From a bacterium (GTDB lineage Archaea > Thermoplasmatota > Thermoplasmata > Lutacidiplasmatales > UBA184), in contig DAIDCO010000017.1 of NCBI GenBank assembly GCA_027309555.1, positions 1 through 36,956 of the forward strand: 36,956 bases of DNA, given 5' to 3'. This document shows, piece by piece, positions 15,980 to 34,530 of the stretch (position 1 is its first letter; every line of letters begins with the position of its first letter). The position numbers and the translations under genes are program-made. The notes beneath the pieces are model-generated. The model made no database searches. It saw only the letters and a list, made by a program, of their open reading frames with translations, and was not told where the DNA came from.

Positions 15980-16085
15980 GGGCCGGTAGATCAGCGGAAG
16001 ATCGCTACCTTGGCAAGGTAGAGGTCGCGAGTTCAAAGGACCGGGAGCGCGCGACGCCTCCGGTCGGAGACTCTCGCCCGGTCCA
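15980..16085 (+). tRNA. tRNA-Ala(GGC) with 34-nt intron in T-loop (position 59/60), intron 16038-16071
   Basis: Acceptor GGGCCGG/CCGGTCC with G3:U70; D-arm GATC/GATC; anticodon arm CTACC-TTGGCAA-GGTAG; T stem GCGAG/CTCGC; spliced T-loop TTCAAAT. Confidence 0.9.
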
Positions 16086-26897: not shown

Positions 26898-27007
26898 CGG
26901 GCCTGTCGGGAGTTTCCGCCTCGGGCACCCGTCGGCGCCCGGGGCCTTTGAACCCGAGTTTGCTGGCTTAGAAGGCCAGTACTTTGTCCAAGCTAAGCTA
27001 CAGGCCC
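26898..27007 (-). tRNA. tRNA-Arg(UCU) with 35-nt intron in T-loop (position 59/60), intron 26912-26946
   Basis: Minus strand: acceptor GGGCCTG/CAGGCCC; D-arm GCTT/AAGT; anticodon arm CTGGC-CTTCTAA-GCCAG; variable CAAAC; T stem TCGGG/CCCGA; spliced T-loop TTCAAAT. Confidence 0.9.
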
Positions 27008-27031: not shown

Positions 27032-27616
27032 TTAATCCTTCGCGCGTGCCGCGCGTCCCGCCGAGGCGACGAGATGCGCGAGCCGCAGCGGTTCCGGCCA
27101 GTACCCTCGGAGCGTCGTCCGGGCGATGAGGCGGGTGGCGTCGGCGCGCGTGCATCCGGCGGCGGCCGCAAGGATCGGTTCGCCCCGGGTGGGGACGCGG
27201 AAGAGCCGGTGGGCCGTGAGGAGCCGCCAGCGACGCGCCGCGTCGGCGGGAAACCATTTCTCGAGCGCGGCGCGAATCCGGTCGAACCCGGGGGCGCGGC
27301 GCGTCACGGCCACGACGGGCAGACCGAGGCGTCGGTGGACGACGTCCAGGTCGACGACATTAAACCCGCCGAGGACCGCCCCATCGAGCAAGAGGGCCCG
27401 CACGCCGTCGAGCGGACCGGTGGCCCGCACGACCCTCACCACCGCGAGCGTCGCGTCCCGTCCGTCGACCGTGACCCGGTCCGTTCGTACTCGCTCGACG
27501 TAGTCCGGCACCGAGAGGAGAACGGCCGCGATCGGCGCGGATCGGTCGGTCCGCGCGAACGCGCCGTCGTCCACTCCGACGACCCTCGGATGCGCCTTGC
27601 CGAGGGACCGCCGCAA
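27032..27616 (-). CDS. DUF99 family protein (endonuclease V-related fold)
   Basis: HPRVVGVDDGAF, LLLDGAVLGGFNVVDLDVVHRRLGLPVVAVTRRAPGFDRIRAAL; TTG start tentative. Confidence 0.85.
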   Translation of the reverse strand: MRRSLGKAHPRVVGVDDGAFARTDRSAPIAAVLLSVPDYVERVRTDRVTVDGRDATLAVVRVVRATGPLDGVRALLLDGAVLGGFNVVDLDVVHRRLGLPVVAVTRRAPGFDRIRAALEKWFPADAARRWRLLTAHRLFRVPTRGEPILAAAAGCTRADATRLIARTTLRGYWPEPLRLAHLVASAGRAARAKD

Positions 27617-27649
27617 AGCTAAGACCTCGTCCGCGGTCGGTCGGGATCG

Positions 27650-28576
27650 ATGGGCGCGCCGACCGTCGCGATGCGATGCCCGGCGTGCGGACAGGAGCTG
27701 CGCGTGGTGCTCGCGCTGTCGCCCCCGACGCAGTGGTTTCCGTGTACGAACTGCCACGTTCCCGTTCCGGTCGTCGTGCCGCGCGACCCGCCTCCCCTGT
27801 TCGCTTGGGAGGTCTTCCCGGGACTTTATCCCACCCTTCCGAGGCCGCGGCTCCCGCGCTGGCGGGCCCGAAGCGTTACCGCCGTCGCCCTCTTCGCGGT
27901 CGTCGTGCTGGCCGTTGCCTTTGGAGGGGTCTTCGCGTTCTACGGCTACGTCGCTGCGTCGCCCGCGAGCTACGAGGTGTCCGGAACCGTCTACGCGATC
28001 TCGGCCGGGGGAACGGTCGGTCCGGCCGCCGGTGCCCAGGTGCTTCTGACGGAGAACGGAGGCGGGCGGCTCGGGACGACCACGGGTCTCGGAGGGGTCT
28101 TCGGCTTCTCCGGGGTCCCCGCCGGGGGAGTCGTTCTGAACGTGACCCTCAGCGGCTACGCCCCGGCCGAGGTCGACACGTTCGTGAGCGCCGTGTACGA
28201 TGCCGGCACGCAGGGAATCTCGGTGACGCTCGCGCCCGGGGGTCCCAGCAACGGATCGACCCTCGTGCTCTCGGCGTTCCCGAGCCTCGAATCGTTCCTC
28301 GCGTCCCTCGGCGCGGCGGTCGCGCTCCTCGGTCTCGTCACCGTGGTCGCCCTCGTCGCCGGCTGGGAGACCCGTCGCCACGACCGCCCCGCGCTCGGGG
28401 TCGTTGGCGGCGGGGCCGGGATCACCGCGCCGGTCGCCCTCTACCTGCTCGGGCTCGCACCGGTCTTCCCGTATCTCTTCGGTGCGACCGCCCTCCTGGC
28501 GGCGTTCGGCGCGTTCGCGCTCAGCGTGCGCGCGGTCGAGCTGGCCCAGACGGGACCGGCGTTGGGCCCGGAGTAG
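27650..28576 (+). CDS. Membrane protein: N-terminal zinc ribbon, TM, carboxypeptidase-regulatory-like (beta) domain, C-terminal TMs
   Basis: CPACGQELRVVLALSPPTQWFPCTNCH; SYEVSGTVYAISAGGTVGPAAGAQVLLTENGGGRLGTTTGLGGVFGFSGVPAGGVVLNVTLSGY; several hydrophobic helices. Confidence 0.82.
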   Translation: MGAPTVAMRCPACGQELRVVLALSPPTQWFPCTNCHVPVPVVVPRDPPPLFAWEVFPGLYPTLPRPRLPRWRARSVTAVALFAVVVLAVAFGGVFAFYGYVAASPASYEVSGTVYAISAGGTVGPAAGAQVLLTENGGGRLGTTTGLGGVFGFSGVPAGGVVLNVTLSGYAPAEVDTFVSAVYDAGTQGISVTLAPGGPSNGSTLVLSAFPSLESFLASLGAAVALLGLVTVVALVAGWETRRHDRPALGVVGGGAGITAPVALYLLGLAPVFPYLFGATALLAAFGAFALSVRAVELAQTGPALGPE

Positions 28577-28595
28577 ACGCGGCGAAACGGGACCG

Positions 28596-29093
28596 CTACG
28601 CCGAGCCGCGCGCGCGGGCCGGGGCGGCGTTCTCGGGCAGGGGGCGTCGGTCGCGCGAGCTTCCCGAGATGGGATGAAAGTAGCCCACCCGGGGTTCTCC
28701 GCGCTGCCAACAGAGGAACACGAGCTCGTCCTCCACGATCCCGTAGAAGTCGACGAGGCCACTGTCGAGGTCCTTGAGCTCGATCCCTTCGTTGCGGAGG
28801 GCGGTCACGACCTCTTCGAGGCGCCGAGTGAGGTTCTTCCACTCGGAGTCGAGCCGTTCCTTGAGATCGTGGTCCGCGTGGTCTGGCGCGTCGACGTCCG
28901 TCCCCCAAAATTCGGAGAGGCGTTTCAACTCCTCGTGGACCTCTCCCAACCGGACGACCCAACCCTTGAGTCGGGGCAGCAGCTCCGCCAGGTCGGCGAT
29001 CCGGCTGTTCGCCTCGCTCGCTGTCCATAAGCGGGGCGGCTCGGCCCGCTCGGTGTCCTTGGGTCGCACGGCCCGGTCCATGCTTCCGTCCAA
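28596..29093 (-). CDS. DUF2203 family protein
   Basis: RLWTASEANSRIADLAELLPRL; GIELKDLDSGLVDFYGIVEDELVFLCWQRGEPRVGYFHPI. Confidence 0.88.
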   Translation of the reverse strand: MDGSMDRAVRPKDTERAEPPRLWTASEANSRIADLAELLPRLKGWVVRLGEVHEELKRLSEFWGTDVDAPDHADHDLKERLDSEWKNLTRRLEEVVTALRNEGIELKDLDSGLVDFYGIVEDELVFLCWQRGEPRVGYFHPISGSSRDRRPLPENAAPARARGSA

Positions 29094-31701: not shown

Positions 31702-32703
31702 ATGGCACGACGGCATCGTCCCCGGCGAGGTTCCCTCGCTTTCTCTCCCCGTTCCCGGGCCGTCCGGCCCGTTCCCCGCATCCGTTCCTGGCCTGACGGG
31801 CCGAAGCAGCCCACGATCGAGGGGTTCGCCGGCTTCAAGGTCGGAATGACCCATGCGTTCATCCTCGACTACCGCAAGCGATCCACCACGGCCGGCCAGG
31901 AGGTCTCGGTGCCGGTCACGGTCGTTGAGGTTCCCCCGCTTCGCATGGTCGGGGTCCGGCTCTACCAGCGGCATCCGTACGGGATGCGGGTGGTCGGCGA
32001 GGTATGGGGAGCGGGTCTCCCGGAGGAGATCCTCCGGCGGATCCCGGGCCACCCGCCGAGCTCCGCCGAGGCGCTCGACGCGTTCGGCCGCCTCGCCGCG
32101 GACGAAGTTCGATTGATCGCCCACACGCAGCCTCAGCTCGTCACCGGGACCGGCTCGAAGTCGCCCGAGATCTTCGAGCTGAGGGTCTCGGGGGAGAAGT
32201 TCGAGGAGCGGCGCGCCTTCGCGCTTGCCAAGGTCGGCCAGGAGGTGCCCGTCGACCAGCTGACCAAGGAAGGGGAGTTCGTCGACGTCATCGGCGTCAC
32301 GAAAGGGTTCGGATTCCAGGGCCACATCCAGCGCTGGGGAGTCAAGCTCCAGCCTCGGAAGAACTCGAAGCACCGCCGAATGATCGGCACCCTCGGCCCG
32401 CACAATCCCAGCTTCGTTTCCTACCGGATCCCCCAGGCCGGCCAGCAGGGCTACCACCGTCGGACCCAGTTCAACCTGCGCGTGCTCAAGGTCGTCCGCG
32501 ACCCGCGGGCCGACCCCCTCACTCCGGCGGGCGGCTTCCTGCACTACGGAGAGGTGCGCAGCGCCTGCATCGTCCTCCACGGCTCGCTCCCGGGACCGGC
32601 GAAGCGCCTTCTTCGCTTCCGCAGCCCGATGCGCAGCCGGGTCGCGACGGTCGAGAAGGTCGACCTGCGCTACTTCAGCACCCGGTCGAAGCAGGGAGCA
32701 TGA
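31702..32703 (+). CDS. rpl3: 50S ribosomal protein uL3
   Basis: FAGFKVGMTHAF, GFGFQGHIQRWGVKLQPRKNSKHRRMIGTLGPHNPS; first gene of S10 operon. Confidence 0.97.
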   Translation: MARRHRPRRGSLAFSPRSRAVRPVPRIRSWPDGPKQPTIEGFAGFKVGMTHAFILDYRKRSTTAGQEVSVPVTVVEVPPLRMVGVRLYQRHPYGMRVVGEVWGAGLPEEILRRIPGHPPSSAEALDAFGRLAADEVRLIAHTQPQLVTGTGSKSPEIFELRVSGEKFEERRAFALAKVGQEVPVDQLTKEGEFVDVIGVTKGFGFQGHIQRWGVKLQPRKNSKHRRMIGTLGPHNPSFVSYRIPQAGQQGYHRRTQFNLRVLKVVRDPRADPLTPAGGFLHYGEVRSACIVLHGSLPGPAKRLLRFRSPMRSRVATVEKVDLRYFSTRSKQGA

Positions 32704-33536
32704 CGCCGGACGCGCAGCCGGGGAGCTCCTCGCTCCCCCCCGAACCGCACCCGCCCCACCACCGCGCGCATCTTCTCGACCTCCAGGGGAAATCGGAGGG
32801 AACGATCGCGCTTCCTCTCGCCTTCTCCCAACCGGTCCGCCCGGATCTGATCCAGCGGGCCGTTGTCGCTGCGCAGTCCCACCGGCGCCAGCCCTATGGC
32901 ACATCCCCGACCGCCGGCCTGCGCCACTCGGTGGAGTGGTCCGGCAAGGGAAAGGGCGTCGCCCGGACACCCCGTCTCATGGACTCGATGCGGGGAGCCC
33001 AGGCGCCCAACACCGTCGGCGGCCGCCCGGCTCACCCCCCCAAGGTCGACCGCATCTGGGCGAAGAAGATCAACCAGAAGGAGCGGCGCCTTGCCTTCGC
33101 GTCGGCGCTCGCCGCGACGCGCGAAGAGAGGCTCGCGAGCGCCCGGGGCCACACGCTCCCCCACGGGCTTCGCCTTCCGCTCGTCGTCTCCGACCCCGTC
33201 GAGGAGATCCACAGCGCGGCCGAGGCGCGGCGCTTCCTCGAACACCTCAAGCTCTGGGCCGATGTGGAGAGGGCCCGGGACCGCACGCACTTCGCCTCGT
33301 CCGGCAAGGCTCGCCGGCGCGGCCGCGTACGCCGCACTCCGCGGAGCGTGCTAGTGGTGACGAGCGCGCCGCAGAAGGCCCGTGGGTTCCGCAACTTCGC
33401 GGGAGTCGAGGTCGTACCGGCGCAACGACTGGCGACCGAGGACCTCGCGCCCGGCGGCGCGGCCGGCCGGCTGACCCTGTTCTCGAAGAGCGCGGTCGAA
33501 TCGCTCCGGACCCGGCTGGGGGAGGTCGCTCCGTGA
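32700..33536 (+). CDS. rpl4: 50S ribosomal protein uL4
   Basis: Archaeal L4 features (RQPYGTSPTAGLRHSVEWSGKGKGVARTPR, VGGRPAHPPKVDRIWAKKINQKERRLAFASALAAT); ATGA overlap start. Confidence 0.96.
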   Translation: MTPDAQPGSSSLPPEPHPPHHRAHLLDLQGKSEGTIALPLAFSQPVRPDLIQRAVVAAQSHRRQPYGTSPTAGLRHSVEWSGKGKGVARTPRLMDSMRGAQAPNTVGGRPAHPPKVDRIWAKKINQKERRLAFASALAATREERLASARGHTLPHGLRLPLVVSDPVEEIHSAAEARRFLEHLKLWADVERARDRTHFASSGKARRRGRVRRTPRSVLVVTSAPQKARGFRNFAGVEVVPAQRLATEDLAPGGAAGRLTLFSKSAVESLRTRLGEVAP

Positions 33537-33802
33537 GCGCCCCGGCCCTCCGCCACCGGATCATCATGCACGCCTACGTCACCGAGAAGTCGATGGACGA
33601 GATGGAGCGGCAGAACAAGCTCGAGTTCGTCGTCGACCACCGCGCGACCCGGGCCGAGATCAAGCGGGCGGTGGAGAGCATCTACCAGTGCAAGGTCGCC
33701 AAGATCACGACCAAGATCGTACGGGCCGGCAAGATCGCGACCGTCCGCTTCTCTAAGGAATCCTCCGCGGAGGACATCGGCAGCCGGGCCGGGGTGTTCT
33801 GA
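33533..33802 (+). CDS. rpl23: 50S ribosomal protein uL23
   Basis: AYVTEKSMDEMERQNKLEFVVDHRATRAEIKRAVESIYQCKV; GTG start overlapping uL4 stop. Confidence 0.95.
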   Translation: MSAPALRHRIIMHAYVTEKSMDEMERQNKLEFVVDHRATRAEIKRAVESIYQCKVAKITTKIVRAGKIATVRFSKESSAEDIGSRAGVF

Positions 33803-34530
33803 TGGGAAAGCGCATCATTTCCCGCCGGCGCGGCAGCGGCACGGGCACCTACCGGTCCCCGAGCCACCGGCACCACGGACCGGTCTACTTCCCGGCGCCC
33901 GAAGTCGTCGGGGAGGGCCACGTGCTTCGAATCGTCCCGGCCCCGGGACGGACCGCCCCGGTCGCCGAGGTCACGGCTCCGAACGGGGACCTGGTGCGCG
34001 TGCTGGCCACCGCCGGCCTCGCGACCGGTGACTCGATCGCCTTCCAGGAGGGCAAAGTCGACCGCGGGTCGATCCTGCCTCTCGGGCACATCCCGGACGG
34101 CACGCTCGTCTCGAACCTCGAGGTCAAGCCGAACGATGGCGGCCGGCTCGTCCGTTCCGCCGGCACGAGCGCGCTGGTCGTGGCCCACACCGCGAAGGAA
34201 GTCACGGTCCAGCTACCCTCGGGCGCCTTCAAGCAGTTCCTCGCCAACTGTCGCGCTCAGGTCGGAGCGGTCGGAGGCAGTGGCCGCCTGGAGCGCCCGA
34301 TCATCAAGGCCGGCAAGAAGGTCTGGACGACGCGATCGCTCGCGCGGGCCCCCTACAAGGTCCGTGGGGTGGCGATGAACCCGGTCAACCATCCGTTCGG
34401 TGGCGGGGCTCACCAGCACGTCGGCCGACCGAGCACGGTGAGCAGCGGCACCTGGCCCGGCGCGAAGGTCGGTCGGTTCTCCCGATCCCCCCGGAAAAAG
34501 CGCGCGCGCCAGCAGCGCGGGAGCGTCTGA
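33802..34530 (+). CDS. rpl2: 50S ribosomal protein uL2
   Basis: MGKRIISRRRGSGTGTYRSPSHR; VRGVAMNPVNHPFGGGAHQHVGRPSTV. Confidence 0.97.
   Translation: MGKRIISRRRGSGTGTYRSPSHRHHGPVYFPAPEVVGEGHVLRIVPAPGRTAPVAEVTAPNGDLVRVLATAGLATGDSIAFQEGKVDRGSILPLGHIPDGTLVSNLEVKPNDGGRLVRSAGTSALVVAHTAKEVTVQLPSGAFKQFLANCRAQVGAVGGSGRLERPIIKAGKKVWTTRSLARAPYKVRGVAMNPVNHPFGGGAHQHVGRPSTVSSGTWPGAKVGRFSRSPRKKRARQQRGSV

What the first reader, a model, noticed from the sequence alone, without database searches (positions are those of the whole stretch)
26898..27007. Second T-loop-interrupted tRNA on the opposite strand: tRNA-Arg(UCU) with a 35-nt intron at 59/60
Minus strand: GGGCCTG-TA-GCTT-AGCTTGGACA-AAGT-A-CTGGC-CTTCTAA-GCCAG-CAAAC-TCGGG-TTCAAA, then ggccccgggcgccgacgggtgcccgaggcggaaac (26946 down to 26912), then T-CCCGA-CAGGCCC-G. 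Removal restores TTCAAAT and all stems. Bulge-helix-bulge: outer TCGGG/CCCGA, central TTCA/GGAA (three Watson-Crick pairs plus A.G), bulges AA|G and AC|T, inner 9-position helix GCCCCGGGC/GCCCGAGGC with one C.A mismatch. An independent second case about 11 kb away rules out chance or a local assembly error as a simple explanation.
Basis: partly seen in the sequence, partly recalled or inferred. Interest (0 to 1): 0.85.

Follow-up and report, generated by a model that had tools for sequence, protein, structure and literature searches.

The report
T-loop introns in archaeal tRNA genes
In a lineage of acid-soil archaea, about a third of the tRNA genes, including this arginine tRNA, carry a small hairpin intron in the T-loop, a position and abundance that textbook rules reserve for a different archaeal group with a different splicing enzyme.

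Summary
Window 27007-26898(-) is a tRNA-Arg(UCU) gene whose T-loop is interrupted by a 35-nt intron (26946-26912) between positions 59 and 60. The junction is a bulge-helix-bulge with 3-4-3 geometry. It is not chance or assembly error: all 21 recovered copies in the same genus keep the intron, with identical exon stems and compensatory changes in the intron hairpin. A T-arm-only covariance model separates interrupted genes (39-53 bits) from everything else (17 bits or less) in the host genome.

It is also not a pair of oddities. I identified 13 T-loop-intron tRNA genes in the host genome. A 100%-complete congener has 13 too, including its only Asn, Asp and His tRNA genes, so splicing must work. 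Twenty-four of 24 genomes of the family carry 5-16 each; elsewhere in the phylum there are usually none or 1-3.

The host is a Lutacidiplasmatales-like Thermoplasmata. It has one fused two-domain splicing endonuclease (euryarchaeal alpha'2 type, without the known specificity loops) and one RtcB ligase. Reviews state that alpha'2 euryarchaea have single introns at 37/38 only. Position 59/60 itself is known from Crenarchaeota. Verdict: a real BHB intron, and a new variant of a known kind. Splicing is inferred; no RNA data were available.

The parts
26898..27007 (-). tRNA-Arg(UCU) gene with T-loop intron (whole gene)
   Evidence: R1 119.5 bits
26947..27007 (-). exon 1 (nt 1-59 of the tRNA): acceptor 5' strand, D arm, anticodon arm with UCU, T-stem 5' strand, TTCAAA
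   Evidence: identical in all 21 congeneric copies apart from a few D-loop, D-stem and variable-loop positions
26912..26946 (-). 35-nt intron at position 59/60
   Evidence: varies in sequence and length (28-35 nt) between species with compensatory changes
26898..26911 (-). exon 2 (nt 60-73): T60, T-stem 3' strand CCCGA, acceptor 3' strand CAGGCCC, discriminator G
26949..26952 (-). central-helix (H) 5' strand TTCA, T-loop nt 54-57, exon side
26914..26917 (-). central-helix (H) 3' strand GGAA, intron side; U54-A, U55-A, C56-G, A57.G
26946..26948 (-). 5' bulge AA^G with 5' splice site
26911..26913 (-). 3' bulge AC^T with 3' splice site
26918..26945 (-). inner intron hairpin
   Evidence: helix 6, 7 of 9 pairs with changes on both sides
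15980..16085 (+). second example: tRNA-Ala(GGC), same architecture, intron 16038-16071 at 59/60

Best explanation
This is a functional tRNA-Arg(UCU) gene with an archaeal bulge-helix-bulge (BHB) intron in the T-loop between nucleotides 59 and 60. In the transcript the T-stem is the outer helix. T-loop nt 54-57 pair with the 4 intron bases before the 3' bulge to form the central helix, and the rest of the intron is a closing hairpin. The single fused (alpha'2-type) splicing endonuclease of the cell should cut in the two 3-nt bulges (AA^G and AC^T). RtcB should join 59 to 60, and only then can the normal T-loop and tRNA elbow form. The gene belongs to a family-wide set of T-loop introns in Lutacidiplasmatales-like Thermoplasmata. 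The T-loop probably serves as a common acceptor site because its sequence (G-UUCRAAU-C) is nearly the same in all tRNAs, so one type of intron end fits every isotype. Shown: gene anatomy, conservation, compensatory changes, distribution, presence of endonuclease and ligase genes. Inferred: cleavage, ligation, order of events, and the reason for the hot spot.
For: Anatomy and restoration of a perfect tRNA. 21 of 21 congeneric copies found retain the intron, with invariant exon stems and a fast-evolving hairpin with compensatory changes: covariation 0.163 against a shuffled mean of 0.083, 0 of 500 shuffles reach it; 95% of cells paired against 52% or less when slid. Across isotypes the covariation is stronger: score 0.647 against 0.201. 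The base opposite nt 57 follows nt 57 without exception in 91 introns: G57 with C in 35, A57 with G in 51 or U in 5; 0 of 2000 permutations reach this (this pair was not a condition of the parser). 13 T-loop-intron genes identified in the host and 13 in the complete congener G044, including its only Asn, Asp and His tRNA genes. Family-wide, 24 of 24 genomes have 5-16. The endonuclease is a fused two-domain protein with Tyr, His and Lys of the catalytic triad conserved, similar to the A. fulgidus enzyme. RtcB is present, E 6e-173. A homodimeric endonuclease from Ferroplasma, also Thermoplasmata, cuts minimal BHB substrates lacking a tRNA body at 30 C (PMC8707768), so location in the T-loop is no obstacle in principle.
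Against: No RNA evidence of splicing. The central helix is not fully paired here (A57.G), and some Asn genes have a C56.C mismatch, which sits poorly with the narrow specificity reported for alpha'2 enzymes. Free folding at 37 C predicts a 7x7 internal loop, not the 4-bp helix, though nearest-neighbour parameters are not good for motifs of this kind. The host identification rests on relatives of one protein and on G+C content, not on a genome tree.
Confidence: 0.93

Rival explanations
1. The gene is a tRNA pseudogene disrupted by a hairpin insertion, with an intact Arg(UCU) elsewhere.
For: A tRNA interrupted in its T-loop would be non-functional unless spliced, and AGA codons are rare.
Against: No intact copy in the host or in the 100%-complete congener. 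Exon stems are invariant in 20 distinct sequences while the insert evolves. 13 isotypes show the same insertion point, including the only Asn, Asp and His genes.
Confidence: 0.02
2. The insertion is retained: the mature tRNA has an expanded T-arm and is not spliced.
For: The hairpin is a coaxial extension of the T-stem and is very stable.
Against: The insert is flanked by BHB junctions whose intron side tracks nt 57, which a retained arm would not require. The T-loop tertiary contacts that all tRNAs need would be lost. A splicing endonuclease and ligase are present.
Confidence: 0.03
3. Assembly or binning artefact, or a real feature of a crenarchaeal contaminant contig.
For: The genome is a fragmented MAG of 114 contigs.
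Against: The same gene with the same intron position is found in more than 20 independent MAGs. The window carries ribosomal L4 and L2 genes, and 13 different regions of the bin carry such introns. The finding is not tied to one contig.
Confidence: 0.01

Closest known systems
Non-canonical BHB introns of Crenarchaeota/Thermoproteales tRNA genes (59/60 among the listed positions; PMC4090602)
   Same: Same insertion point, BHB junctions, several isotypes affected, some genes with two introns.
   Different: The host is a euryarchaeal-branch Thermoplasmata with a fused alpha'2-type endonuclease instead of the heterotetrameric (alpha beta)2 enzyme. Here the T-loop dominates the intron positions, and almost all junctions keep 3-4-3 geometry.
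Canonical euryarchaeal tRNA introns at 37/38 (for example tRNA-Trp and tRNA-Tyr)
   Same: BHB motif; presumably the same endonuclease and RtcB. The host also has four of these (Trp, Tyr, Met, Leu-UAA).
   Different: Position is T-loop, not anticodon loop, and there are three times as many.
tRNA-intron-rich soil Asgard archaea (Atabeyarchaeia, Freyarchaeia; PMC11291895)
   Same: Soil archaea with a large share of tRNA genes interrupted at non-canonical positions.
   Different: Different phylum; 92-95% of genes interrupted, often at non-canonical positions, there; about a third interrupted mainly at one position here.
alpha'2 splicing endonucleases of Archaeoglobus fulgidus and Thermoplasma/Ferroplasma
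   Same: Fused two-domain protomer; full-length sequence similarity to 1r0v/2gjw; catalytic residues kept.
   Different: The host enzyme has an additional segment of about 10-14 residues in the N-terminal domain (PRGGxxxKTPSRYW). A. fulgidus and the 289-aa Thermoplasma-type homologue lack it. Its role is unknown.

Membership tests
tRNA-Arg(UCU) | cloverleaf with UCU anticodon after intron removal, 7/5/5-bp acceptor, anticodon and T stems | tested here: met
tRNA-Arg(UCU) | archaeal arginine identity elements A20 and G73 present (from memory) | tested here: met
   one search shows G18 G19 A20 and discriminator G; charging not testable
archaeal BHB intron (hBHBh') | two 3-nt bulges separated by a 4-bp central helix, flanked by outer and inner helices | tested here: met
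   3-4-3 geometry in all Arg(UCU) copies; 3 of 4 central pairs standard, the fourth always A.G in this set
archaeal BHB intron (hBHBh') | removal restores the conserved mature RNA | tested here: met
   T-loop TTCAAAT
archaeal BHB intron (hBHBh') | excision by the splicing endonuclease | not testable with these tools
   no RNA data
canonical 37/38 tRNA intron | insertion one nucleotide 3' of the anticodon | tested here: not met
   insertion is 59/60; anticodon loop uninterrupted
alpha'2-type splicing endonuclease | two tandem tRNA_int_endo domains in one protein, C-terminal one with Tyr/His/Lys triad | tested here: met
   it is the only PF01974 gene found in the genome
broad-specificity endonucleases with Crenarchaea-specific or ARMAN-specific loop | inserted lysine-bearing loop between YG and LSL of the catalytic unit | tested here: not met
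   no insertion at the site where 3p1y carries an inserted segment, which I read as the grafted loop
Lutacidiplasmatales (host) | acid-soil Thermoplasmata MAGs, G+C about 69%, genome about 2.1 Mb | tested here: met
   (58-87% endonuclease identity to Thermoplasmata MAGs, among them the AcS/SubAcS acid-soil series); no genome tree made

The most novel reading that the evidence does not exclude
The Thermoplasmata alpha'2 endonuclease has independently gained relaxed specificity, perhaps through the N-terminal PRGGxxxKTPSRYW segment, which would let a homodimeric enzyme process T-loop introns with imperfect central helices and D-loop introns without an adjacent outer helix. This would break the rule that only (alpha beta)2 and epsilon2 enzymes are broad, and would explain the burst of T-loop introns in Lutacidiplasmatales.
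Probability: 0.3. Interest if true: 0.75.

Novelty: new variant of a known kind. Interest (0 to 1): 0.62.

Why it matters
The standard picture ties endonuclease architecture to intron position: alpha4 and alpha'2 euryarchaea have one intron at 37/38, and only (alpha beta)2 and epsilon2 lineages scatter introns over the tRNA (PMC4090602, PMC6379350). Here a whole family of alpha'2 archaea has up to a third of its tRNA genes interrupted at one non-canonical site, including sole-copy essential tRNAs, and scattered 59/60 introns occur across the phylum. That makes the co-evolution rule directly testable with one small protein and one 110-nt RNA. The T-loop, the most uniform sequence among tRNAs, also suggests a simple reason why introns of one type could spread between isotypes. 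In practice, tRNA finders that do not model this will report missing Asn, Asp, His, Lys and other tRNAs in these genomes.

Tried and rejected
Pseudogene, retained T-arm extension, assembly or contaminant: each rejected on conservation, isotype number and absence of intact copies. ARAGORN with introns allowed finds only anticodon-loop introns and mis-ends this gene. The first pattern finder was too strict and missed Asp, Asn, Gly, Gln, Glu, Arg(TCG) and Ser(CGA); it was loosened and complemented by the covariance model. The phylum-wide model search scored only 15 candidates per genome, so its counts for intron-rich genomes are too low; repeated with deeper scoring. A known specificity loop (CSL/ASL) was looked for in the endonuclease and not found. 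Recent copying of one intron between isotypes was considered: inner hairpins of different isotypes are not visibly similar, while orthologous introns are, so the spread predates the genus. Literature searches for T-loop or non-canonical tRNA introns in Thermoplasmata or Methanomassiliicoccales found no report, but subscription papers, supplements and GtRNAdb were not searchable.

Full report
OBSERVATION. The minus strand of 27007-26898 reads GGGCCTG-TA-GCTT-AGCTTGGACA-AAGT-A-CTGGC-CTTCTAA-GCCAG-CAAAC-TCGGG-TTCAAA, a 35-nt insert, T-CCCGA-CAGGCCC-G, exactly as reported. Exon 1 is 27007-26947, the intron 26946-26912, exon 2 26911-26898. ARAGORN calls tRNA-Arg(tct) with a wrong 3' end. Rfam's tRNA model reaches only 32 bits because it cannot span the insert. 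The second case, tRNA-Ala(GGC) at 15980-16085(+), has a 34-nt intron at the same point.

ANATOMY. The T-stem TCGGG/CCCGA is the outer helix. T-loop nt 54-57 (TTCA) face the intron's GGAA, giving U54-A, U55-A, C56-G and A57.G. The bulges are AA^G and AC^T, and the remaining intron is a hairpin. The minimum-energy fold shows the hairpin and T-stem but leaves the central helix open as a 7x7 loop; z is -3.9 against shuffles.

CONSERVATION. A DNA search of 40 relatives found the gene in nearly all members of the genus. All 21 copies that I could parse carry the intron at 59/60 with 3-nt bulges. Exon stems are invariant apart from one D-stem pair, while the intron varies in length (28-35 nt, counting the complete congener G044) and sequence. 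The inner helix shows changes on both sides in 7 of 9 pairs. Covariation is 0.163 against a shuffled mean of 0.083 (0 of 500), and pairing falls from 95% to 52% or less when partners are slid. A57.G is constant in this set.

GENOME-WIDE PICTURE. A tRNA search of the host at low stringency, plus fetched regions, shows many more such genes. A T-arm-only covariance model built from 20 sequences of different isotypes and lineages gives two clearly separated groups in the host loci: T-loop-intron genes at 39.6-53 bits and everything else at 16.7 bits or less. The 13 genes are Arg(UCU), Arg(UCG), Ala(GGC), Lys(UUU), Asp(GUC), Glu(CUC), Asn(GUU), Gly(UCC), Ser(GCU), Ser(GGA), Ser(CGA), Gln(CUG) and Leu(UAG). 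A genome-wide run counts 14; I did not identify the fourteenth. All 13 contributed a training sequence to the model, so the score gap in the host is partly by construction; the congener G044, which contributed none, gives the same gap (33-48 bits against 20 or less). Lys(UUU) and Leu(UAG) have a second intron in the D-loop.

ESSENTIALITY. In congener G044 (100% complete, 20 contigs) the same model and census identify 13 T-loop-intron genes among about 42 tRNA candidates. Its only Asn, Asp and His genes are interrupted this way, and its only Arg(UCU) gene too. AGA codons are rare in the window's genes, so Arg(UCU) alone would be a weak argument; Asn, Asp and His are not.

CENTRAL HELIX ACROSS ISOTYPES. 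Across isotypes and lineages the covariation score is 0.647 against 0.201 shuffled. In 91 distinct parsed introns, G57 faces C in 35 of 35; A57 faces G in 51 and U in 5 (this pair was not demanded by the parser, while pairs 54-56 were, so only nt 57 is independent evidence). Some Asn genes have a C56.C mismatch in the central helix; others in the same genus are perfectly paired.

DISTRIBUTION. In 394 genomes of the phylum, 72 have at least one match; all 24 sampled members of the host family do, and 48 of the other 370, usually with 1-3 matches. With deeper scoring the 24 family members have 5-16 each, about 11 on average. Outside the family I parsed 59/60 introns mainly in Arg(UCU), Arg(CCG) and Lys(UUU). 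Within the order, G025 and G027 have an intronless Arg(UCU) while G026 has a 13-nt intron. So 59/60 introns are scattered and probably old in the phylum, with strong accumulation in one family. Whether this is common inheritance with losses or repeated gain is open.

HOST. The endonuclease is 58-87% identical to proteins of Thermoplasmata MAGs from acid soils and similar sites. Names of the AcS/SubAcS series match the Lutacidiplasmatales study, whose type description gives about 69% G+C and 2.1 Mb (PMC9287336); the window is 69% G+C and the genome 2.04 Mb. I did not build a genome tree.

MACHINERY. The genome has one splicing-endonuclease gene with two PF01974 domains in one frame. The C-terminal domain keeps Tyr, His and Lys of the triad and the protein aligns along most of its length with A. 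fulgidus EndA. It lacks the Crenarchaea- or ARMAN-type loop at the YG...LSL site. It does have an extra segment in the N-terminal domain (PRGGxxxKTPSRYW) that A. fulgidus and a Thermoplasma-type 289-aa homologue lack. RtcB is present.

MECHANISM. Transcription gives a pre-tRNA whose T-arm is a long BHB hairpin. The endonuclease cuts both bulges, RtcB seals 59 to 60, and the T-loop can then dock with the D-loop. Cleavage in a non-tRNA context is documented for the homodimeric enzyme of Ferroplasma, a relative, at 30 C (PMC8707768), which makes position alone no obstacle. The reason for the hot spot is my inference: the T-loop is the stretch most alike between tRNAs, so the same kind of intron 3' end (CGAA, GGAA or GGAG plus the bulge) fits all of them.

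COMPARISON WITH THE LITERATURE. 59/60 is a listed non-canonical position, with Crenarchaeota and Nanoarchaeota named as the rich sources; the same review states that euryarchaea with alpha4 or alpha2 enzymes have one intron at the canonical position (PMC4090602). Another review lists alpha'2 enzymes as narrow (PMC6379350). Loop-bearing enzymes correlate with diverse introns (PMC12397907). tRNAscan-SE 2.0 credits its newly found non-canonical-intron genes mostly to Crenarchaeota and Thaumarchaeota (PMC8450103). I found no report for Thermoplasmata. The Lutacidiplasmatales paper does not mention introns.

LIMITS. No transcript data. Counts are model matches, checked by hand only in two genomes. 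Taxon names for G-handles are not given. The literature library lacks most subscription papers.

Noticed in passing
L031, L291 (tRNA-Met CAU), L032, L301 (Arg GCG), L037, L311 (Lys UUU), L035 (Leu UAG): D-loop introns in the same genomes. In tRNA-Met the central helix CAGG/CCTG is perfect with 3-nt bulges, but no outer helix lies next to it, so it looks like a relaxed motif that an alpha'2 enzyme is not expected to favour.
   Followed up: partly
L314-L336 (tRNA-Asn orthologues): Within one genus the Asn T-loop intron switches between fully paired central helices and ones with a C56.C mismatch; natural variants for testing endonuclease tolerance.
   Followed up: partly
L044 (endonuclease, residues about 100-123 of the 354-aa protein): Segment PRGGxxxKTPSRYW in the N-terminal domain, conserved in most of the class and absent from A. 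fulgidus and a Thermoplasma-type homologue.
   Followed up: partly
class-level genomes such as G209, G254, G333 (L246, L255, L250): T-loop introns in tRNA-Arg(UCU) and tRNA-Lys(UUU), some with a second intron. A published M. luminyensis genome lacked any detected tRNA-Lys (PMC4153887); an interrupted gene could be the reason. Not checked.
   Followed up: no
window 27032-28762 (-): An endonuclease dU (PF01949) reading frame ends 24 bp upstream of the tRNA-Arg gene on the same strand.
   Followed up: no
window 32004-34530 (+): Ribosomal proteins L4 and L2 genes; the L4 frame has a long N-terminal open extension, probably a wrong start in G+C-rich DNA.
   Followed up: no
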